Assembly (NCBI RefSeq): GCF_019426345.1
Contig: NZ_JAHLLW010000003.1
Span: 62,001 to 126,000 of the forward strand
Source of the DNA: Marinomonas lutimaris
Lineage (GTDB): Bacteria > Pseudomonadota > Gammaproteobacteria > Pseudomonadales > Marinomonadaceae
Direction: 5' to 3'
Length of the DNA stretch: 64,000 bases
Part shown: one piece after another, positions 40,099 through 51,836 of the stretch
Layout of the letters: every line of letters starts with the position of its first letter
Position numbering within the stretch: position 1 is the stretch's first letter
The notes under the pieces: model-generated
What the model saw: the letters and a program-made list of their open reading frames with translations, nothing else
Database searches by the model: none
What the model was told of the DNA's origin: nothing
Position numbers and translations under genes: made by a program

Positions 40099-40174
40099 TG
40101 GTGGAGCTAAGCGGGATCGAACCGCTGACCTGTTCGCTGCCAGCGAACCGCTCTCCCAGCTGAGCTATAGCCCC
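40099..40174 (-). tRNA. tRNA-Ala(GGC), copy 1 (last transcribed)
   Basis: A 76-nt cloverleaf with encoded CCA. Anticodon loop CTGGCAG on stem GTTCG/CGAAC gives GGC. The acceptor stem GGGGCTA pairs fully with TAGCTCC, including the G3-U70 alanine identity pair. Confidence 0.95.
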
Positions 40175-40248
40175 ACAAAGCGCTTAGCGCATGTGGACAG
40201 AATGTCCTGAGAATAGTGTTTTCCAATTATGCTTTATTTCAGAATAAT

Positions 40249-40324
40249 TGGTGGAGCCTAGCGGGATCGAACCGCTGACCTGTTCGCTGCCAGCGAACCG
40301 CTCTCCCAGCTGAGCTATAGCCCC
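40249..40324 (-). tRNA. tRNA-Ala(GGC), copy 2, mismatched acceptor
   Basis: Same body and anticodon GGC as copy 1. The 5' acceptor strand is GGGGCTA while the 3' strand is AGGCTCC. This leaves A7 opposite A66 and makes U6-G67 a wobble pair. It looks like a chimera of copies 4 and 1. G3-U70 is kept. Confidence 0.88.
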
Positions 40325-40398
40325 ACAAAGCGCTTAGCGCATGTGGACAGAATGTCCTGAGAATAGTGTTTTCCAATTATGCTTTATTTCAGAATAAT

Positions 40399-40474
40399 TG
40401 GTGGAGCCTAGCGGGATCGAACCGCTGACCTGTTCGCTGCCAGCGAACCGCTCTCCCAGCTGAGCTATAGCCCC
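40399..40474 (-). tRNA. tRNA-Ala(GGC), copy 3, mismatched acceptor
   Basis: Identical to copy 2, including the A7-A66 mismatch at the base of the acceptor stem. Confidence 0.88.
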
Positions 40475-40548
40475 ACAAAGCGCTTAGCGCATGTGGACAG
40501 AATGTCCTGAGAATAGTGTTTTCCAATTATGCTTTATTTCAGAATAAT

Positions 40549-40624
40549 TGGTGGAGCCTAGCGGGATCGAACCGCTGACCTGTTCGCTGCCAGCGAACCG
40601 CTCTCCCAGCTGAGCTAAGGCCCC
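40549..40624 (-). tRNA. tRNA-Ala(GGC), copy 4 (first transcribed)
   Basis: Same tRNA body. The acceptor GGGGCCT pairs fully with AGGCTCC, with G3-U70. It is closest to the promoter. Confidence 0.95.
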
Positions 40625-43776: not shown

Positions 43777-43941
43777 TTAAAAAGAAAATAATGGGCGACG
43801 TAGCGTGCAAACGCATCTTCCCACAAGCAAGAAACGTCGGTGGATCAGAAAACCGCACCAACTTGCGTTGGGTCGCCAGCGACGTAATGTCATGGGCGCT
43901 GGCTCAGAAAATGACACACTGAGTTGATTTACAGCAGACAT
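43777..43941. other. short non-coding stretch at the island's left side
   Basis: Here GC-rich sequence contains a repeated GCGACGTA word and repeated TCAGAAAA words. It could be part of a dispersed intergenic repeat, but no second copy exists in the window. No gene is supported. Confidence 0.3.
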
Positions 43942-43969
43942 AAAAAAACCGCCAAAGGGCGGTTTTTTT
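43942..43969. terminator. bidirectional terminator
   Basis: CCGCC and GGCGG arms around loop AAA/AAAG, with seven A before and seven T after. It ends the CPXCG gene and separates it from the next gene. Confidence 0.85.
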
Positions 43970-43997
43970 AAAACTTTATTAACAGGGAGCAAAAAAG

Positions 43998-44462
43998 ATG
44001 AACATTCAGCAATCAAAAACACTCATGAGCCAGATAAAAGCAATGCAAAGCGAAGGCCATAAATTACTCTTCGCATATTTCGCACCAACAAGAGATTTTC
44101 ATTTTTCCGATATCAGTGATGTCGAAGAAATGCACAAATCATGGAATAAATTTCGCGCTCACTGCAAAATAAATAACATACAACTTCAAGGCGTAAGGCG
44201 CTTTAAAACAAGCATAAAGCGAAGAAGACAGATACTTGAAGTAGCTTTTTTTGTTCCAAGAGCTTCAATTGAGGCTATTAAAAATCAGCTATCTGATGCT
44301 TTTCCAAAACCTAATTTCAAAATCACAATAATGGAAACGCTAACCGAAGAAGGAGCAATTCAGTACATTGAAAATAAAATGCTACACCCTGATCAAGCTA
44401 GCGAAAACCCAACTTTGATTAACGCCACTCCGAATCCTTTGGCAACTCAAACTCAACAATGA
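43998..44462 (+). CDS. hypothetical protein, 154 residues
   Basis: I do not recognise this protein. It is soluble, has no signal peptide and looks like an alpha/beta domain (FAYFAPTRDFHFSDISDVE near the start, VAFFVPRASIEAIKNQLSD in the middle) with a low-complexity Asn/Thr/Gln tail. A good GGGAG site lies 8 bases before the ATG. Its last 44 bases overlap the 3' end of the convergent gene. Confidence 0.75.
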   Translation: MNIQQSKTLMSQIKAMQSEGHKLLFAYFAPTRDFHFSDISDVEEMHKSWNKFRAHCKINNIQLQGVRRFKTSIKRRRQILEVAFFVPRASIEAIKNQLSDAFPKPNFKITIMETLTEEGAIQYIENKMLHPDQASENPTLINATPNPLATQTQQ

Positions 44463-44751
44463 ATATAGGAAAGTCTTCATATACATATTTCAAAGGAAGA
44501 ATCTCTTCCTCATGAACACTATGTACAATGGCTTTTGGGGTTAGCTTAACAAAATCAGCTAACGCCTCAATTGCCTTCGAAATCACCAATCCATCATCTT
44601 CACCAAGTATTGCCTCTATGCCATTTTCTGTACTCTCAAATCCTTGTATACTGTTGGCTGGCAATCCTTCCTCATCGTCTCGTAACTCTTTATCAAATAT
44701 AGCCGCACTTTGCAGTTTTATTAACTTATCGTAAAATTTCTGAAGTTCCAT
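44419..44751 (-). CDS. hypothetical protein, 110 residues
   Basis: I do not recognise this small acidic protein. The start MELQKFYDKL is used, with AGGA about 10 bases upstream; an ATG 13 codons earlier is possible. It has no membrane segment. It lies on the same strand as the TIR/SLATT cluster and about 120 bases after its last gene. It may be an accessory or immunity-like gene of the island, but nothing in the sequence shows this. It converges on and overlaps its neighbour by 44 bases. Confidence 0.65.
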   Translation of the reverse strand: MELQKFYDKLIKLQSAAIFDKELRDDEEGLPANSIQGFESTENGIEAILGEDDGLVISKAIEALADFVKLTPKAIVHSVHEEEILPLKYVYEDFPIFIVEFELPKDSEWR

Positions 44752-44870
44752 CTCATTCAATCCTGTTTTAATTTTGTAAGTAGGAAGCATTAATTAGTAG
44801 AATATTTTATAAAGCGCTTAGCCATCTAGCCAAACGGCTTCAATGGAGATTATCATAGAATAAAAAATAT

Positions 44871-45947
44871 TCATGATATAACCTTAGTTTTATTTAGAAT
44901 TTTTAGTAAACTAACAAAATTATCAACATTAAATTCATTCATATTATAAACAATCCTAAGGTTTTCCAGTGGCGCAGCCCCACTATAAATATATGAATCA
45001 TCTCTAGACGTCAATGTAAAAACCATTCCACTAAAATCAAAATAACGACCTGAAATTTCTGATATTTTTATTTCAACTTTAGACAATTTAGAAGAAGCCT
45101 TAAAGTCAGTTGTTTCTAATGATATAGAGTTTTTAAAGACTACTGAAAACCAACATTTCTTAGGATTTTCTTCATACATATCTTTAAAAACATTACTAAT
45201 AGTATCTTCATATTTTTTAATCATATAAGGATCAACTTTAATTACAAAAACACTTCTAGAACTTTTTCTTATATCTTTATATGCCATTAGTCCATGCGCA
45301 TATAATTCATTTTTGCCATTAAAGGAAGAGTCAATACCGTCTGTTTTCAATTTCATTCCAAAGAAATCAATAAAGTCTTCCCTAATAAGGTTTTTTTGAT
45401 CATCTCCACCAAAAAAAGGAGGAAAATCAAATTCTAAATAATCTATTTGCTCAAAATATTTATTTGATTCAAATAGAATATCAAAATCCAATTCTAATAA
45501 AGAATCAAAATCTTCTTTTGAAAAAGACATTGGGAAATCATACTTAAACTCTTTATTCAATATACTGATAAAATTATTAAGACTTTCTTCTGAAACAAGG
45601 TTAAATCCCTGCAAAAGATTTAGCGGTGGCCTGAGTGAACCAATATCAACCCCCTTTATTCCAATTGGAATAACTTTTACATTTTTCGCATAGGCAAACC
45701 CTGTTTCAAAATATATCCAACTTGATGAGAGTGATTCTGGAGAAACAAAAACAAACATTAATTTTGCTTTATGTAAATTTTCTTCTGTTTTATGAATCCA
45801 ATTATTTCCAAAAGGAATACTTTCACCATCACTTGATTGAAATATATTTATAGTTCCTGATGTACGTTTACTAACGCCATTTTGTAGCGCAGAAATATAA
45901 TCTTTATCAACGGAAGAATGACTAAAAAACACTGTTGGCTTATCCAT
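44871..45947 (-). CDS. TIR-domain protein with unrecognised C-terminal domain
   Basis: A 358-residue protein with an N-terminal TIR domain (about 4-130): start VFFSHSSVDKDY, and the catalytic-type Glu81 within SSWIYFETGFA. TIR domains with this Glu often cleave NAD+ or make ADP-ribose-based signals. The C-terminal half (about 140-355) has no family I can name and may be a sensor or effector. The ATG at 45947 is preferred over a GTG two codons upstream. It is the last gene of the ThsB-like/SLATT/TIR/TIR cluster, 38 bases after the previous TIR gene. The gene is strongly AT-rich. Confidence 0.85.
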   Translation of the reverse strand: MDKPTVFFSHSSVDKDYISALQNGVSKRTSGTINIFQSSDGESIPFGNNWIHKTEENLHKAKLMFVFVSPESLSSSWIYFETGFAYAKNVKVIPIGIKGVDIGSLRPPLNLLQGFNLVSEESLNNFISILNKEFKYDFPMSFSKEDFDSLLELDFDILFESNKYFEQIDYLEFDFPPFFGGDDQKNLIREDFIDFFGMKLKTDGIDSSFNGKNELYAHGLMAYKDIRKSSRSVFVIKVDPYMIKKYEDTISNVFKDMYEENPKKCWFSVVFKNSISLETTDFKASSKLSKVEIKISEISGRYFDFSGMVFTLTSRDDSYIYSGAAPLENLRIVYNMNEFNVDNFVSLLKILNKTKVIS

Positions 45948-45985
45948 ACACACTCATTTTTTAAACATAGAAAAAAATAAAAACA

Positions 45986-46816
45986 CTATCTACCTTTGGT
46001 ATTTTTTGTATCTTTTATTTTAAATCCTTTAATATTTAACTTCTCAGATTCCATAACTTCATTAATGATCCTATCTTTTTCTTCATTACCAAAACCTAAT
46101 GAATTTAAATAATTAGAAACACTCCCTAAACCATATTCGCCAGAATAAATCATTTCAGAAACTCTTTTATTTATATCGTCATCATGTATTTTAAAGTAAT
46201 GTGCATTATCGAAACTATCAAATTTAACATTAGATTCAAGCTTTCTAATCCTATTAGATAAACCTCTTGTATGATTTAAAATTTCACTTAATATATCTTG
46301 CTCTGACCGGGGAGGTATGTTTTCTTGGGGTGGATTATCTCTTATTGCTTTTTCAAAACCGTCATTGAAAGCAGGCCAATACGTCTCAAATACCTGTTCA
46401 AGTATACGCTCTTCTAAAGCATTAGAATCCAAGCAACTATTGATTGTTCGAGTTAAAGCCCAAACACTACTTTTATCAACTGTAGTGTGATTAAACTGCC
46501 CCAAAGGATCTTGTAAGTCTTCAGGCTTTAAATCTACTAATAAAGTGCATACGCGGTTTGTTGTTAATCCTTTAGCCAACGCTCCTGTCTCAAAGAGTAT
46601 CCAAGGTTTATCTTTATTCTCTTGAGTTAAACAAACAACACCAACAGAAACATCTTTTAATTTATCATTAATTTCTGTAAACCAAATCGCTCCTCTGTCA
46701 ATATCTCTCGTTGAAATCCATGGCTGAGAGGCTTGAATTACGCATTTTAGCCAATCACTCATCAACTCTGCGACAGCTTTACTTCTATTTCCTGACCAAC
46801 TAATAAATATTTTCAT
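45986..46816 (-). CDS. TIR-domain protein, second of the cluster
   Basis: From the ATG with GGA 7 bases upstream the protein is 276 residues. The TIR domain spans about 1-150: MKIFISWSGNRSKAVAELM at the start, STRDIDRGAIWF, and the catalytic-type Glu76 in KPWILFETGALAKG. The remainder is a charged, helical region (LSNRIRKLESNV) without a recognised family. It lies between the SLATT gene and the other TIR gene on the same strand. NAD+ cleavage is inferred from the conserved Glu. Confidence 0.87.
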   Translation of the reverse strand: MKIFISWSGNRSKAVAELMSDWLKCVIQASQPWISTRDIDRGAIWFTEINDKLKDVSVGVVCLTQENKDKPWILFETGALAKGLTTNRVCTLLVDLKPEDLQDPLGQFNHTTVDKSSVWALTRTINSCLDSNALEERILEQVFETYWPAFNDGFEKAIRDNPPQENIPPRSEQDILSEILNHTRGLSNRIRKLESNVKFDSFDNAHYFKIHDDDINKRVSEMIYSGEYGLGSVSNYLNSLGFGNEEKDRIINEVMESEKLNIKGFKIKDTKNTKGR

Positions 46817-46899
46817 TACACATTCCATTTTAAGATGTAATTGCACTTCAAACACTTTACGAAACTAGATTTTACTAGTATGAATGGTATCTAAAAATT

Positions 46900-47772
46900 T
46901 TAGGTGTCACTTTTAGCTGCCCATTGAGTATGCTCTCTAGAAAATGCATTTTCAGAATCCCTCACGAACTCAGAAAACTTCGTATCGGTTTCCGAATCTT
47001 CTAACATCCCTCTAATTATTCCAATTTCGTGAGCAGCAAGAGAGTATGAAGCAGTAATCTCTCGATAACGCTTAAGCTGCATCCAGGTCAAAACCCCACC
47101 TGCGGCAACTACAAAAATATCGGTTGGCCACAAACTCCATTCTGGATAGACAATCCTTAATAACACGGATATAACAGCAAAAACCTGAAGCAATATTAAT
47201 GCGAAAAAAAACTGCCCACCTCTTCGTTTATTTAATGCAGATTTTGTTGCATACCACTTTCTTTGCTCATCAATTCGATACTTCAAATAAAACGCTTTCC
47301 TATCAACTAATGTCCCATTACGAGTAGAAAGCATCAAGGCTGTAATTTGTTCTTCGTTACTATCTTCTCCTCCTAAAACTTCTCCGAGGTTGTTATTACT
47401 TCTAAGTATTTCAGTAAGTAAATTTCCAAATAAAGCCTTCACCTCGATAATTGAAGTTGCATCTAAAAATGGATCAGCTTTCATCATAAAACGCCAACTT
47501 GCTGTCTTTATAGATTCAGCAAGAGCTCGAGAGTTATACCATGTCTTTTCATAATTTTTTGTAGCAAGCAATATTGATATACAAATTGCCGCTATAAAAA
47601 CTAATGCATTTAACAATGAATATTCTTTTGTTGGAAGTGGGTTTACAGACAATAAAGCACCTACTAAAAACAAAAATATCTGACACCTTATTGCCAACAG
47701 ATATTTCGCTTGTGCGTTATTAGATGCGGAATCTGCGGCCCTATATAGAGCCGGATAATCTTGATGATTCAT
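46900..47772 (-). CDS. SLATT-domain membrane protein, four TM (DUF4231-like)
   Basis: A 290-residue protein with two helix pairs: about 27-43 and 53-70, then about 184-206 and 215-232. The segment YNSRALAESIKTASWRF after the first pair and HEIGIIRGML with SREHTQW near the end are SLATT features. SLATT proteins are predicted membrane effectors that form pores in conflict systems, activated by nucleotide signals. It begins 9 bases after the ThsB-like TIR gene, so the two are almost surely co-transcribed. A sensor-signal/membrane-effector pair is inferred. Confidence 0.85.
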   Translation of the reverse strand: MNHQDYPALYRAADSASNNAQAKYLLAIRCQIFLFLVGALLSVNPLPTKEYSLLNALVFIAAICISILLATKNYEKTWYNSRALAESIKTASWRFMMKADPFLDATSIIEVKALFGNLLTEILRSNNNLGEVLGGEDSNEEQITALMLSTRNGTLVDRKAFYLKYRIDEQRKWYATKSALNKRRGGQFFFALILLQVFAVISVLLRIVYPEWSLWPTDIFVVAAGGVLTWMQLKRYREITASYSLAAHEIGIIRGMLEDSETDTKFSEFVRDSENAFSREHTQWAAKSDT

Positions 47773-47781
47773 TAAAAAATC

Positions 47782-48174
47782 CTACATTGTAGCTAGAGCT
47801 TGGAGGTTTTGTTCACTCCACGCATATACTCTAATTTTATTATCAGACAAACATTTTGGTATAGGCCCATTTGTACCACTCAGCCTAATCGCGTAAACCG
47901 GCTTCTCTGCAGCCAGTGTCATGTTTACTTCATGGGGAACCCAGTAACTTGTATAGGTCTCATTACCAACAAAGACTATTGTTCTAGATGTACCAGTAAT
48001 CGTTTTAGAAATAGCTTGCTTGATAACAGCAGCATCTTCAGTTTTCCAACGCGTTAGCAAATCTCTTACTCTGAAATTAAGGCTAGTATAATTTGAATTA
48101 ACCGCTCGCCCCTTAACGGTTAGAACAACACCTCTATCCTCTTCTTTGAAACTAAAAAATACTACGTTAGACAT
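47782..48174 (-). CDS. small ThsB-like TIR protein (DUF1863-like)
   Basis: The strong AAGGAG site 6 bases before this ATG sets the start, giving 130 residues. The fold is the TIR-like family found in Thoeris ThsB: it starts NVVFFSFKEEDR, then KTITGTSRTIVFVGNETY, then WVPHEVNMTLAAEKPVYAIRL, where Glu82 is in the catalytic position. ThsB proteins sense phage and make an ADP-ribose-derived messenger. No ThsA-like SIR2-SLOG or macro-domain effector is present. The partner next door is the SLATT membrane protein. Confidence 0.85.
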   Translation of the reverse strand: MSNVVFFSFKEEDRGVVLTVKGRAVNSNYTSLNFRVRDLLTRWKTEDAAVIKQAISKTITGTSRTIVFVGNETYTSYWVPHEVNMTLAAEKPVYAIRLSGTNGPIPKCLSDNKIRVYAWSEQNLQALATM

Positions 48175-48251
48175 ATCACTCTCCTTGATAAAAACTAAAT
48201 GGATAAAAAATAACTCTATTTTCCTAAGTAACTTCAATATAGAAGCCTCTT

Positions 48252-48551
48252 TTAAACTTGATAGTGCTCTCGGTGGTATTGAATAAACTCTAAATCAATC
48301 TTATGCCTTTTCACTGCCTTCAATTCGCCCTCTATGCCGACCAAACTTAGATCATCAGCAATGGTAAAACCGCCGTTATCAAAAAGTACGTGGTGATTGG
48401 GGCAAAGACAGAGAATGTTGCTTTCTACATCAGGCCCGTTGTGTGGTTGGCCTAATGGTTTGATGTGGGCGGCTTCTGCAAGTTCGGCACGGTCTTTAAA
48501 AATTTGACTAGGAATATGGCCGAAGACACGTCCTGCATTGTTGTTAGCCAT
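48252..48551 (-). pseudogene. internally deleted SRA(YDG)-HNH endonuclease
   Basis: The 99-residue product starts like a YDG/SRA-HNH nuclease (NAGRVFGHIP, DRAEL) and then passes directly to the C-terminal HNH core (AAHIKPLGQPHNGPD, CLCPNHHVLFD, YHREHY). Relatives have roughly 200 more residues between these parts: the SRA base-flipping domain and the first Cys pair of the HNH zinc site. An in-frame deletion is the simplest reading, so the protein is probably inactive. A GGGAAG site precedes the ATG. It lies just upstream of the TIR/SLATT genes. Confidence 0.7.
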
Positions 48552-48701
48552 AACTTCCCTTGTACTACTGGTGTGACGTGCTGCGCTTTTTCTAGCGTGG
48601 TTGCACTGCAATCTGAGTGTATGATTGCTTCATATTGTTGTCATTTCCTTTACAGTAAATCGTTTTGACCTTTTGCGCTAGTCGAACCAAACGCCAGGCA
48701 C

Positions 48702-48731
48702 AAAAAAAACCGCCACTTGGGCGGCTTTTTT
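48702..48731. terminator. bidirectional terminator
   Basis: CCGCC and GGCGG arms around ACTTG, with eight A to the left and six T to the right. On the minus strand it ends the two Cys/His-protein genes and the integrase transcript before the TIR side. Confidence 0.85.
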
Positions 48732-48828
48732 AAAGCTGCTCTCACTCGTTATTTGAGTCAATACCAACTAACGTAAAACTGTGTATTCGAAAAATTTACA
48801 TATCATAGGTCTAGTGCTTTATATATTT

Positions 48829-49863
48829 TTATATTTCGTAAGGTTTTAGTTCAACGACATTTGTCTTAATACTAGTAATATCCCAATCTACTGAAGCTAC
48901 CTTACCTTCAGATAAGCAATTAGACTCATGATCAGAGAAATTCATCACTCTATTTTGAATGATTTTTTTATCAGTCTGCGAAAGTGAATTCCACCACAAT
49001 GGCGACATGAATGTATTTTCCAAAAATTCAAATACAAACCGAGTAATATATTCTGGTATGTTTTTTAACCCTTTTTTTAGAAGATCTAACAAGAAACCTA
49101 TATTTTTTTGGCTTTCATCAACCCACTGAAACAAAATCACACCACCTAAATCAGAAGAAAAAATATTTAAACTTAAATAATCGCTACTATGTTTTGGCTG
49201 ACCCAAATACTGTATGTAATAACCATTAAAAGAAATCTCTGGAATAAGCGCTCCTGAACACATAAATTCAGTTAAACTAGCAGTTCTAATAGATAAAAAC
49301 TTAACACTTTCATATCTCTTATTAACAATCAAATTTTCCAAATAAAATTTCAAAGAAGACAGCTCAGATTCAGCAAGCTCCATGCCATGATATTGCATAT
49401 CCAGATTACGAAGTAATTGAGGATCTGAATGATCATCTTTTAATATTTTGTAACTTTCTTGATGCATCCTCATCTGCTCTGATTTAGCATATATTTCCTT
49501 ACAAAAAGTTCTATAGCCTAAAAGTAGTGAATGCTCCTCACAATCGATAAATACATTGTTCTCAATAGGTGAAAATAACTCTGCATCATGTACAGAACAA
49601 AAACCAAAAAATGTTGATGCTTTTTTTATCCCTTCAAGTTTGGGCGCAAATTTACCATTATTTTTCATGATATTATGGAATATTGGCTTAAAATACATTA
49701 CATGACTTTTAGCAGAAATATTTTTCAATCCACCACTTTTTTGAATCGTATGGGCATTTACTATTCTATTAGAGCATCTATTACCATCTGATGAAGAAAA
49801 ATAACAATATTTATAGGGCGTCCAATTTAAAGCTAGTTGTTTTAATTTTTCTGCAGCATCCAT
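48829..49863 (-). CDS. unknown Cys/His-rich protein, 344 residues
   Basis: I cannot name this family. The N-terminal 45 residues carry C20, C30 and an AHTIQK motif, followed by FGFCSVHD near residue 92; this pattern resembles a treble-clef or HNH-like metal site. The rest is mixed alpha/beta with no signal or membrane helix. It follows the 248-residue gene by 40 bases on the same strand and both share the C..C-[AS]H-x-x-x-K style, so they may act together. It is strongly AT-rich. A nuclease role is speculation. Confidence 0.75.
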   Translation of the reverse strand: MDAAEKLKQLALNWTPYKYCYFSSSDGNRCSNRIVNAHTIQKSGGLKNISAKSHVMYFKPIFHNIMKNNGKFAPKLEGIKKASTFFGFCSVHDAELFSPIENNVFIDCEEHSLLLGYRTFCKEIYAKSEQMRMHQESYKILKDDHSDPQLLRNLDMQYHGMELAESELSSLKFYLENLIVNKRYESVKFLSIRTASLTEFMCSGALIPEISFNGYYIQYLGQPKHSSDYLSLNIFSSDLGGVILFQWVDESQKNIGFLLDLLKKGLKNIPEYITRFVFEFLENTFMSPLWWNSLSQTDKKIIQNRVMNFSDHESNCLSEGKVASVDWDITSIKTNVVELKPYEI

Positions 49864-49903
49864 ACACTTTCTCCTGACCTATAATTTTTTATTAGCCATG
49901 CAT

Positions 49904-50650
49904 TTAATGATTTCTATTGTAGTATTCCAATCTATATTCTTCCCAGAAAGACGTAAAAAATTTATCTTTTTTATCTATATATTTAAATATAGTTAAAACA
50001 TCTTTCCTTGCTTCAAAAGAAAAAAGAGCTTCAAGCCTTGATTTTTTTTCATATAGACCAGGAAAGCAAATAAAACCCCATCCATTAATAAACGAATACA
50101 AAAACTCACTATTGTCGTTCCTAATGTATTTTTTCGGAAAAATATGCATCCCCCTCATATCAATACAACTTTGTTCCGATCTAATCACTCTTATCGGATA
50201 CAAGTTTGTAGGCCAATCTGAGGCACTAGGATCAAGCAAAGATACCCTTATCATATCTAAAATATTTTCTGGTATATCACATTCAATATACTCTACCCTT
50301 TTGGCTACCGAGGCACGCCAAAACATACTCAAACAAAATAACCGCCATAGCTTGTAATCAAATTTAATAGAAAAAAAATCATCACTACGACAAAAATGTG
50401 TTTCAGCTTGCTTCAATATTTTTATCCCGTAACTTTCAAACGCCCCAATTTTATCTTCGCATCCCTTACATAATAATTTCTCATACACCCCCTCCCTACG
50501 TGGAGATCCAGCACTAACAGATCGATTACCTTTAAAGAACTTTGGAACAACAGCTTCCCTATCTAACCCCAAAAGAGATTTAGGGAAAATGTGAGACTTA
50601 ACAATGGCTTTATTTTCTCGACATAATGGACAAAAGCCTACATTTGTCAT
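49904..50650 (-). CDS. putative HNH-like zinc protein, 248 residues
   Basis: The N-terminus has CPLC at 7-10, then SHIFPK near 19-24, then LLCKGCEDKIGAFE near 60-73. Two CxxC pairs and a central His are the layout of a treble-clef HNH-type nuclease, though no full HNH signature can be confirmed by eye. The remaining 170 residues are unrecognised. It starts 10 bases after the integrase stop, so it probably shares its transcript. It is likely an island-borne defence or mobile-element gene. Confidence 0.75.
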   Translation of the reverse strand: MTNVGFCPLCRENKAIVKSHIFPKSLLGLDREAVVPKFFKGNRSVSAGSPRREGVYEKLLCKGCEDKIGAFESYGIKILKQAETHFCRSDDFFSIKFDYKLWRLFCLSMFWRASVAKRVEYIECDIPENILDMIRVSLLDPSASDWPTNLYPIRVIRSEQSCIDMRGMHIFPKKYIRNDNSEFLYSFINGWGFICFPGLYEKKSRLEALFSFEARKDVLTIFKYIDKKDKFFTSFWEEYRLEYYNRNH

Positions 50651-50660
50651 GAAATATCTC

Positions 50661-51680
50661 CTAATCCAACATCAATGCTATGTCACCCATATCTGGTGCG
50701 TAGTAAACCCGCTGCAGGATTCTTAGGTCTGTATGGCCTGATATTTTCGCTAGGTTTAGCACGTCCACTTTGGTGGCTAGTCGTGTCAGTGCTTCCCGTC
50801 TCAGGTCGTGAAAGTGCAGATCGTCTATTAGGCACTTGTTACGTATCTTTCTGAAATTCACATCTAGCGAATCTGATTTCAGGTTAAAGGCTTTTAGCTT
50901 GCAGTCATCTAGTGTTTTGAGCTTTTCCAATACTTTCACCGCTGTGGTGGATAACGGCACGGTACGAGGATTACCGTTCTTTGTTTTGGGTAGATGAACA
51001 GTTCGTCTTTCTAAATTCACGTCTTCCCATGTTATGCCGCAAATTTCACCGGCACGCATGGCGGTTTCTATGGCAAAGACGATGGCCGCGCCGATACGTT
51101 CGCTTTTGGATTCTGGCGGTATGTCTATGTCGTATTGTGTGGCGATCATCAGTTGTTCAAATTCACCAGGTAACAGCCGTCTCGTTCTAGCCTCAGGCTC
51201 TTTAGGACGCTTCACCCTTGTCATTGGGTTTTCTCTCAACCAGCCCCACTCCTTCGCACACTGGCTACAAATAGAAGACAACACGGTCCATTCACGAAGC
51301 ACAGTACCAACGGCCACTTTTTGTAGGCGTCTGTCTCGCCATTCGGCAAAGTGTTTGGATTGTAGGTCTTGGAGGGAAATATAACAAAGTGGGTCTGCTG
51401 GCTCATCGGCGCTTTTGCCTAACCAGCGTTCGATTCTTCGGATTTCGAATTTCTGACCGCGCTTGGTCACACTGACCGTATCGCGGTAGCGTTCTAGTGC
51501 TTCACTAAAAGGACGATCTGGAATATCAGAGGAAGTACTTTCTTTAGCTTCACGCTCTAATTCAGACGCCCATGCTTGCGCCTCACGCTTTGTAGAGAAG
51601 CCACGCTTCGTCTTACGCTTACCTTTCACGCTAACTTGAGCACGCCATGATCCATCATCGGTTTTAAAAATAGACGCCAC
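50661..51680 (-). CDS. tyrosine-recombinase integrase
   Basis: A phage-type integrase of 339 residues. An N-terminal arm-binding domain (SWRAQVSVKGKRKTKRGFST) precedes a SAM-like core-binding domain and a catalytic domain with R209, H291-x-x-R294, H316 and Y326 (a second Tyr follows at 327). It is complete and likely active. It is the island gene nearest the tRNA-Leu(UAA) gene, about 175 bases away, which fits integration at the tRNA 3' end. Direct-repeat attachment sites were not found. Confidence 0.95.
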   Translation of the reverse strand: MASIFKTDDGSWRAQVSVKGKRKTKRGFSTKREAQAWASELEREAKESTSSDIPDRPFSEALERYRDTVSVTKRGQKFEIRRIERWLGKSADEPADPLCYISLQDLQSKHFAEWRDRRLQKVAVGTVLREWTVLSSICSQCAKEWGWLRENPMTRVKRPKEPEARTRRLLPGEFEQLMIATQYDIDIPPESKSERIGAAIVFAIETAMRAGEICGITWEDVNLERRTVHLPKTKNGNPRTVPLSTTAVKVLEKLKTLDDCKLKAFNLKSDSLDVNFRKIRNKCLIDDLHFHDLRREALTRLATKVDVLNLAKISGHTDLRILQRVYYAPDMGDIALMLD

Positions 51681-51836
51681 TGAATATTCTCCGGTGCAAT
51701 GTGCGGTGCAGTTTCGGTGCAGAATTTCAGAAAAGATAGCATATAAAGGGAAAAGCTTACAATTTGAAGTAGTACTAAGAAAATGCTGGAGAGTCGATAT
51801 TTAAAGGGATTGAGCAAGATAAGAAAGTGCAGGCAT

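What the first reader, a model, noticed from the sequence alone, without database searches (positions are those of the whole stretch)
44871..48174. TIR / SLATT / TIR / TIR cluster: candidate new NAD-linked defence system
Four same-strand genes encode a small ThsB-like TIR protein, a four-TM SLATT protein and two further TIR proteins, each TIR keeping the catalytic-type Glu (Glu82, Glu76 and Glu81). Gaps are 9, 83 and 38 bases. From known families, TIR domains cleave NAD+ or make ADP-ribose messengers and SLATT proteins are predicted membrane effectors. Three distinct TIR proteins around one membrane effector is not a standard Thoeris layout that I know. I infer a phage-sensing system where one or more TIR products open the SLATT pore or deplete NAD+.
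Basis: partly seen in the sequence, partly recalled or inferred. Interest (0 to 1): 0.88.

Follow-up and report, generated by a model that had tools for sequence, protein, structure and literature searches.

The report
TIR–SLATT membrane-effector phage-defence module
On an 8-kb mobile DNA island a bacterium carries a gene pair found together in many other bacteria, a small TIR enzyme and a membrane protein, that is predicted to answer phage infection by making a nucleotide signal that would open the cell's own membrane; two further TIR genes beside it are likely partly or wholly separate defences.

Summary
The four genes are real and as described, but the four-gene unit was found nowhere else. 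The recurrent core is a pair: ThsB-like TIR (gene 4) and SLATT_3+SLATT_1 membrane protein (gene 3). Of 21 loci found by SLATT alone, 18 have a TIR as next gene; the others are a fragment or interrupted by insertion sequences. Of 14 loci found by the gene-4 TIR, 5 have SLATT next door and 9 an ASK1-like TPR-S-type protein. That TIR keeps 63-78% identity across six phyla while partners differ. This looks like exchangeable effectors around a constant signal maker: Thoeris-like, without a known ThsA. Gene 2 is a lone-TIR type: SLATT in 0 of 14 relatives' loci. Gene 1 is undecided: contig lengths hint that relatives share contigs with SLATT (3 seen, 0.25 expected; cut-off chosen afterwards). The genes lie on an integrase island whose empty site is seen in two same-genus genomes. 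Phage defence, signal and pore are inferred; TIR–SLATT pairing was already predicted in print (PMC9503650). New variant of a known kind.

The parts
47782..48174 (-). gene 4: small ThsB-like TIR protein, 130 aa, WVPHE motif (Glu82); predicted maker of the signal
   Evidence: PF08937 5.1e-13; 417 homologues at E <= 0.001; profile of 27 family rows matches PDB 8fz9 at 2.6e-77, titled 'Crystal Structure of Bacillus cereus TIR protein'
46900..47772 (-). gene 3: SLATT_3 + SLATT_1 membrane protein, 290 aa, predicted four-TM effector
   Evidence: PF18184 1.1e-40 and PF18181 1.6e-37; 1593 homologues at E <= 0.001; model pLDDT 89, no convincing solved relative; TIR next door in 18 of 21 SLATT-anchored loci
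45986..46816 (-). gene 2: TIR protein of the PADLOC 'TIR-TM' family without a hydrophobic segment, 276 aa, WILFE motif (Glu76); likely a separate single-gene defence
   Evidence: PDLC03016 2.9e-57, positions 1-220 of 293; no hydrophobic segment; relatives without SLATT in phage, prophage and viral-contig loci and on a small plasmid
44871..45947 (-). gene 1: TIR protein with about 220-residue C-terminal domain of unresolved fold, 358 aa, WIYFE motif (Glu81); second sensor of the SLATT module or separate
   Evidence: PF13676 5.9e-10; 742 homologues at E <= 0.001; model pLDDT 87; contig-length coincidences with SLATT
48252..48611 (-). HNH_2 protein upstream, possibly a remnant of a longer restriction enzyme; not part of the module
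   Evidence: PF13391 1.1e-12; NF045808 1.3e-10, far under its cut-off, over positions 194-237 of 284 only
50661..51680 (-). tyrosine integrase of the island
   Evidence: PF00589 8.4e-25; the same integrase DNA with other cargo at the same site in two same-genus genomes (L055, L056)
43792..51823 (.). mobile island (edges approximate; its left end is shared with other islands from 43779)
   Evidence: window 43791 (L064) or 43769 (L065) and window 51824 lie only 78 and 86 bases apart in two same-genus genomes; window 43779-43969 recurs at the far end of the L055 island and 43779-43954 at that of L056
51855..51940 (-). tRNA-Leu next to the integration site
   Evidence: ARAGORN; no direct repeat of 12 or more bases between this region and the left part found

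Best explanation
Genes 4 and 3 are a two-gene TIR–SLATT module, a pair that recurs in distant bacteria, in which the TIR is predicted to turn NAD+ into an ADP-ribose-type signal on phage infection and the SLATT protein would be the membrane effector that the signal opens, likely killing the cell before the phage is made. Steps: (1) the TIR senses an infection cue (inferred; cue unknown); (2) it uses Glu82 to cleave NAD+ and releases a signal (predicted from the WxxxE motif and the TIR family); (3) the SLATT protein answers the signal, directly or by oligomerising, and permeabilises the inner membrane (predicted; no separate sensor domain was matched in it); (4) growth stops or the cell dies (inferred). 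Gene 2 is most likely a separate one-gene TIR defence that landed next to the pair. Gene 1 may be a second sensor feeding the same SLATT or a third defence; the evidence does not decide. The whole set is cargo of an integrase island.
For: TIR next to SLATT in 18 of 21 SLATT-anchored loci, in same-strand and convergent arrangements. 14 of 14 gene-4-anchored loci from 6 phyla have SLATT (5) or a TPR-S-type protein (9) as next gene. Gene-4 relatives keep 63-78% identity in those loci, while SLATT partners fall to 29% and 27% in L021 and L022; the tree needs 3 partner changes, 2 forced by its one starred branch or more. WxxxE kept. Gene 2 relatives: 0 of 14 loci with SLATT. Same longest-contig length for SLATT and gene-4 homologues: 11 seen, 1.3 expected; at 3.5 kb or more 6 seen, 0.22 expected. 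GC differs by gene: 38.9, 36.8, 32.4 and 27.9% from gene 4 to gene 1, as expected of stepwise assembly.
Against: No activity of any kind is shown. No convincing solved relative of SLATT was found and a pore is not visible from the monomer model. Many of the 16 plasmid loci are near copies, so 18 of 21 is not 18 independent cases; the TIR of L032 was matched only at 4e-4. In the enteric plasmids the pair is convergent, so co-transcription is not a rule. Partner type is also clustered on the TIR tree (24-28 of 500 shuffles need as few changes), so exchange is not frequent. In L016 and L076 SLATT and TPR-S have a TIR each, which fits two separate signals as well as one shared. Gene-1 and SLATT homologues share exact contig lengths (3 at 3.5 kb or more, 0.25 expected) and other SLATT loci hold two or three TIR genes (at least 11 of 27), which speaks for gene 1 belonging to the module. 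No terminator-like site was found between the four genes.
Confidence: 0.6

Rival explanations
1. All four genes are one system: gene 4, gene 2 and gene 1 are alternative sensors, each answering a different phage cue, that feed one SLATT effector, as several ThsB proteins are thought to feed one ThsA.
For: Same strand, gaps of 9, 83 and 38 bases, no terminator-like site between. At least 11 of 27 SLATT loci hold two or more TIR genes, and a same-genus genome has TIR-SLATT-TIR-TIR with other subfamilies (L009/L066). Gene-1 and SLATT homologues share three contig lengths of 3.5 kb or more against 0.25 expected. In Thoeris one ThsA with several ThsB is described (PMC11204291, passages read).
Against: Gene 2 relatives are without SLATT in 14 of 14 loci, 13 of them in phages, prophages or viral contigs. 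No fetched locus but the window's own has gene-1 or gene-2 type TIRs beside this SLATT family, apart from a distant gene-1-like TIR in L078 (1e-7). GC falls stepwise from gene 4 to gene 1.
Confidence: 0.25
2. The three TIRs are direct NADases that each kill by NAD+ depletion, and SLATT is an unrelated or regulatory membrane protein.
For: Each TIR keeps the WxxxE motif. Lone TIR relatives of genes 1 and 2 occupy the slot behind the replication gene of small plasmids (L030, L086), so they seem to work without a partner.
Against: Gene 4 is never alone in the 14 loci fetched: SLATT or a TPR-S-type protein is next to it, and in the same kind of small-plasmid slot SLATT comes with a TIR (L006, L074).
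Confidence: 0.12
3. TIR-SLATT is an addiction or toxin-antitoxin-like pair that keeps the plasmid or island in the cell rather than a phage defence.
For: Often on plasmids, with RelE/ParE, MazF or RelB genes near, and here on an integrase island.
Against: TIR and SLATT are families known or predicted from anti-phage systems, neither looks like an antitoxin, and the partner of the TIR is exchanged for a TPR-S-type protein.
Confidence: 0.03

Closest known systems
Thoeris (types I, II and IV)
   Same: Small ThsB-family TIR proteins (PF08937), one effector with one or several TIRs, TIR next to effector; a membrane effector in type II.
   Different: No SIR2, SLOG, macro or caspase-like domain matched in the effector; SLATT_3+SLATT_1 instead. 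PADLOC finds only a weak match of residues 191-260 to ThsA2 (0.018).
TIR + 2TM SLATT pairs of firmicute phages (Iyer et al. 2022, PMC9503650, passages read)
   Same: TIR beside SLATT; SLATT predicted there to be an ADPr-derivative-regulated effector that controls membrane permeability.
   Different: Here a SLATT_3+SLATT_1 double protein, found on bacterial chromosomes and plasmids (no match in 50,697 phage records; one viral contig, L032), a much conserved TIR, and exchange with TPR-S-type proteins.
SMODS/CD-NTase + SLATT pairs
   Same: SLATT as predicted nucleotide-responsive pore.
   Different: The signal maker here is a TIR; no CD-NTase among the ten proteins scanned between 43998 and 51680.
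PADLOC 'TIR-TM' (PDLC03016), for gene 2 alone
   Same: 2.9e-57 over positions 1-220 of 293.
   Different: The last quarter of the model is not matched and there is no hydrophobic segment.
SPARTA TIR-APAZ, for gene 1 alone
   Same: TIR first, second domain after it; Foldseek ranks TIR-APAZ chains first (2.4e-6).
   Different: A TM-score of 0.30 is no more than TIR-only chains reach (SpbK 0.33); no Argonaute among the window proteins scanned; no APAZ-named model hit.

Membership tests
Thoeris | ThsB-family TIR protein | tested here: met
   PF08937 49.7 bits, cut-off 21.2; PADLOC ThsB 1.7e-12
Thoeris | ThsA effector with SIR2-SLOG (type I), TM-macro (type II) or caspase-like domain (type IV) | tested here: not met
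   Gene 3 matches SLATT_3, SLATT_1 and DUF4231 above cut-off and nothing of these kinds; none of the ten window proteins scanned does. So it is Thoeris-like, not filed as Thoeris
Thoeris | TIR product activates the effector and stops phage | not testable with these tools
   needs expression, phage challenge and nucleotide measurement
SLATT | SLATT domain above curated cut-off | tested here: met
   PF18184 139.9 bits (cut-off 26.3), PF18181 128.7 bits (cut-off 26.3); NF033610 and NF033634 above cut-off
TIR-SLATT pair | TIR gene next to the SLATT gene across genomes | tested here: met
   18 of 21 SLATT-anchored loci; 16 of 81 plasmid records were opened; related plasmids inflate the count
one four-gene system | co-occurrence of all four genes in other genomes | tested here: not met
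   no locus besides the window's among those fetched; gene 2 relatives 0 of 14 with SLATT; gene 1 only in the own genome among 390 and 369 genomes searched, own included. Metagenome contigs could not be opened
SPARTA (gene 1) | short Argonaute next to TIR-APAZ | tested here: not met
   no PIWI or Argonaute match among the ten window proteins scanned
SPARTA (gene 1) | APAZ domain after the TIR | tested here: inconclusive
   full-length Foldseek alignments but TM-score no better than TIR alone; of 39 members no Pfam hit outside TIR models and no APAZ-named PADLOC hit
CBASS with SLATT | CD-NTase next to SLATT | tested here: not met
   none among the ten window proteins scanned

The most novel reading that the evidence does not exclude
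A highly conserved TIR family makes one constant messenger that is read by two unrelated effectors, a four-TM SLATT membrane protein and a prokaryotic ASK1-like TPR-S protein, at times both in one locus (L016; with other TIR subfamilies L004, L071, L072, L076): a further Thoeris class whose signal stays fixed across six phyla while the killing arm is exchanged, and in which extra TIR proteins, gene 1 among them, plug in as additional sensors.
Probability: 0.38. Interest if true: 0.82.

Novelty: new variant of a known kind. Interest (0 to 1): 0.6.

Why it matters
SLATT proteins were predicted in 2015 (as cited in PMC7159879, passages read) to be nucleotide-responsive pores, and no convincing solved relative was found for this one. 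A tight TIR family with a crystal structure already in the PDB (8fz9) that stands beside SLATT in some phyla and beside an ASK1-like TPR-S protein in others gives a clean two-gene test of that prediction, and would link bacterial TIR signalling to the TPR-S/MAP3K architecture of animal ASK kinases.

Tried and rejected

Contig-length test: indirect; the contigs were not fetched, only the best 120 per gene (of 1593, 417 and 742) were compared, the window's own contig was left out, and the 3.5-kb cut was set after three matches had caught my eye. Without a cut SLATT and gene 1 give 4 against 1.5 expected, from 2 kb 3 against 0.72; gene 4 and gene 1 give 1 against 1.6 without a cut.
Full report
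1. What is there. Four minus-strand genes between 44871 and 48174. Gene 4 (47782-48174) is a 130-residue ThsB-family TIR; gene 3 (46900-47772) is SLATT_3 plus SLATT_1 in one protein; gene 2 (45986-46816) is a TIR of PADLOC's TIR-TM family; gene 1 (44871-45947) is a TIR with a C-terminal part of about 220 residues in which no Pfam, NCBIfam or PADLOC model was matched in the window's protein. All three TIRs keep W-x-x-x-E. The gaps of 9, 83 and 38 bases are right.

2. Where it sits. The genes are cargo of an island of about 8.0 kb, roughly 43792-51823, with a tyrosine integrase at 50661-51680 next to tRNA-Leu. I read the site in 11 of the 12 same-genus neighbours that a DNA search returned. In two (L064, L065) window 43791 or 43769 is followed after 78 or 86 bases by 51824: the site without the island. 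In two others (L055, L056) the same integrase DNA and the same left end (window 43779 to 43969 or 43954) frame different cargo; in L055 no full-length integrase frame was in my list. L057 has part of the left end (43800-43906) and a related HNH stretch. So the site takes exchangeable cargo. GC of the genes runs 38.9, 36.8, 32.4, 27.9% from gene 4 to gene 1, against 47.7% for the integrase.

3. SLATT and TIR go together. I collected loci by the SLATT protein alone: 16 opened of 81 plasmid records with a match, four genome loci and one viral contig. In 18 of these 21 a TIR gene is next to SLATT (and annotation): L003-L007, L024-L026, L032, L072-L078, L080, L081. In L032 it is an 847-residue protein with an N-terminal TIR-like stretch, read by eye and matched only at 4e-4. 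The three exceptions are L027 (a SLATT fragment near a contig end), L071 (TPR-S-type gene on one side, two insertion sequences on the other, then a TIR remnant at 9e-9) and L079 (SLATT cut by an insertion sequence). Orientation varies: same strand in the window, L005, L024-L026, L032, L072 and L073; convergent in the enteric and Vibrio plasmids. Many plasmid loci are near copies, so the number of independent cases is lower. Counting also the five SLATT loci found through gene 4 and L009/L066 (a two-TM SLATT of another subfamily), at least 11 of 27 loci hold two or more TIR genes (L004, L005, L009, L016, L021, L022, L024, L072, L073, L076, L078; by similarity, for L072, L073 and L078 also by annotation). 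L009/L066, in a genome of the same genus, reads TIR-SLATT-TIR-TIR with other subfamilies.

4. The gene-4 TIR has two kinds of partner. Its family is tight: the 119 best homologues other than itself are 73-84% identical to it. A scan of the species-genome collection with the family alignment gave 14 loci, from 66 stretches that matched a pattern. All 14 have one of two genes next door: SLATT (L010, L012, L016, L021, L022) or a 410-455-residue protein (L011, L013, L014, L015, L017, L018, L019, L020, L023; in L018 on the other strand). Three of these nine (L011, L015, L020) and the one of L016 were scanned and match Pfam TPR-S (4e-21 to 6e-25) and, in L015 below cut-off, MAP3K_TRAF_bd (1.2e-3 to 2.5e-45); the other six were assigned by similarity to two of this kind, L014 weakly (3e-14). 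The N-terminal part matches a PADLOC TIR-effector model in the five scanned; the name DrHyd for it is recalled. L016 has both modules in a row: TIR-SLATT-TPR-S-TIR; V. harveyi (L004) and Morganella (L076) plasmids have SLATT, TPR-S and two TIRs of other subfamilies. The loci span Pseudomonadota, Bacillota, Bacteroidota, Balneolota, Thermodesulfobacteriota and Stahliibacteriota, and the TIR stays 63-78% identical to the window's. On the TIR tree the partner label needs three changes, two of them forced; it is also more clustered than in most shuffles (24-28 of 500 as low), and only 1 of 13 inner branches is starred, so the tree is rough. A TIR that hardly changes while its partner differs is what a constant product with exchangeable readers would give; that step is inference. 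Against it: in L016 and L076 each effector has a TIR of its own, as two separate signals would need.

5. Gene 2 is likely separate. Relatives lie in E. coli prophages and phage mEp390 between holin and Q, with no partner, in ten viral contigs and on a 4.7-kb Serratia plasmid. None of these 14 loci has SLATT or a gene-4 TIR: 13 tested by profile, the plasmid by its annotation. L036/L037 and L002/L029 are near copies, and some contigs end close to the gene. On small plasmids the slot behind the replication gene holds SLATT plus TIR (L006, L074), a lone gene-2-type TIR (L086) or a lone gene-1-like TIR (L030).

6. Gene 1 is undecided. Full-length relatives are in databases but not in the genomes I could search: own genome only, of 390 and 369. 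Four distant, shorter TIR relatives have no SLATT near (L030, L083, L084, L085). Against this, gene-1 and SLATT homologues share the exact longest-contig length three times at 3.5 kb or more where 0.25 is expected, as SLATT and gene 4 do six times (0.22 expected); gene 4 and gene 1 never (0.07 expected). The cut was chosen after the matches were seen; from 2 kb it is 3 against 0.72, without a cut 4 against 1.5. This hints that a gene-1-type TIR can stand beside SLATT in place of gene 4.

7. Structures. The gene-4 profile matches PDB 8fz9 at 2.6e-77 and BcThsB (6lhy) at 8e-6; 8fz9 is titled 'Crystal Structure of Bacillus cereus TIR protein'; no paper on it was found in the held library. SLATT models well (pLDDT 89) as long helices without a convincing solved relative. 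Gene 1: TIR at 1-138; remainder unresolved.

8. Against the known. Thoeris: same kind of TIR, same logic, different effector, so Thoeris-like, not Thoeris. PMC11204291 (passages) states that one ThsA may go with several ThsB. PMC12847820 (passages) lists 3'cADPR, His-ADPR and N7-cADPR as TIR signals for types I, II and IV. PMC9503650 (passages) reports TIR next to 2TM SLATT in firmicute phages and predicts an ADPr-derivative-regulated membrane effector; [quoted passage not shown] So the mechanism was predicted before; what I did not see in the ten searches is the exchange of SLATT and TPR-S around one TIR family.

9. Verdict. Observation confirmed; interpretation partly supported; a recurrent TIR-SLATT core with likely passengers on a mobile island; new variant of a known kind.

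Noticed in passing
window 48829-49863 and 49904-50650 (-): Two neighbouring genes between integrase and HNH gene with no Pfam, NCBIfam or PADLOC match; the second begins with CPLCRENKAIVKSHIFPK and a similar stretch (CKLCLEEKKLCKSHIFPK) is in the cargo of the same site in L055 (3924-4712). Perhaps a further defence pair.
   Followed up: no
window 43779-51823; L055, L056, L058: A same-genus integration hotspot at tRNA-Leu: same integrase DNA or part of it, in L055 and L056 the same left end, different cargo.
   Followed up: partly
L006, L074, L030, L086: On small plasmids the slot directly behind the replication gene holds alternative TIR cargo: SLATT plus TIR, a gene-1-like lone TIR or a gene-2-type lone TIR, overlapping the end of the rep gene.
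   Followed up: partly
L005 and L073 (Rhizobiaceae plasmids): TIR-SLATT-TIR operons that also hold a gene annotated 7-cyano-7-deazaguanine synthase, a gene annotated DNA lyase (L073; hypothetical in L005) and a long TIR protein: a larger version of the module.
   Followed up: no
L032:3-2546: Viral contig with an 847-residue N-terminally TIR-like protein whose end overlaps the start of a SLATT gene.
   Followed up: no
window 40099-40624 (-): Four tRNA-Ala(GGC) genes in tandem at 150-base spacing.
   Followed up: no
window 48252-48611 (-): HNH gene that matches only a late part of a phosphorothioate-DNA restriction model, far under its cut-off; a related stretch lies at the same site in another genome (L057:1806-1934).
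   Followed up: partly
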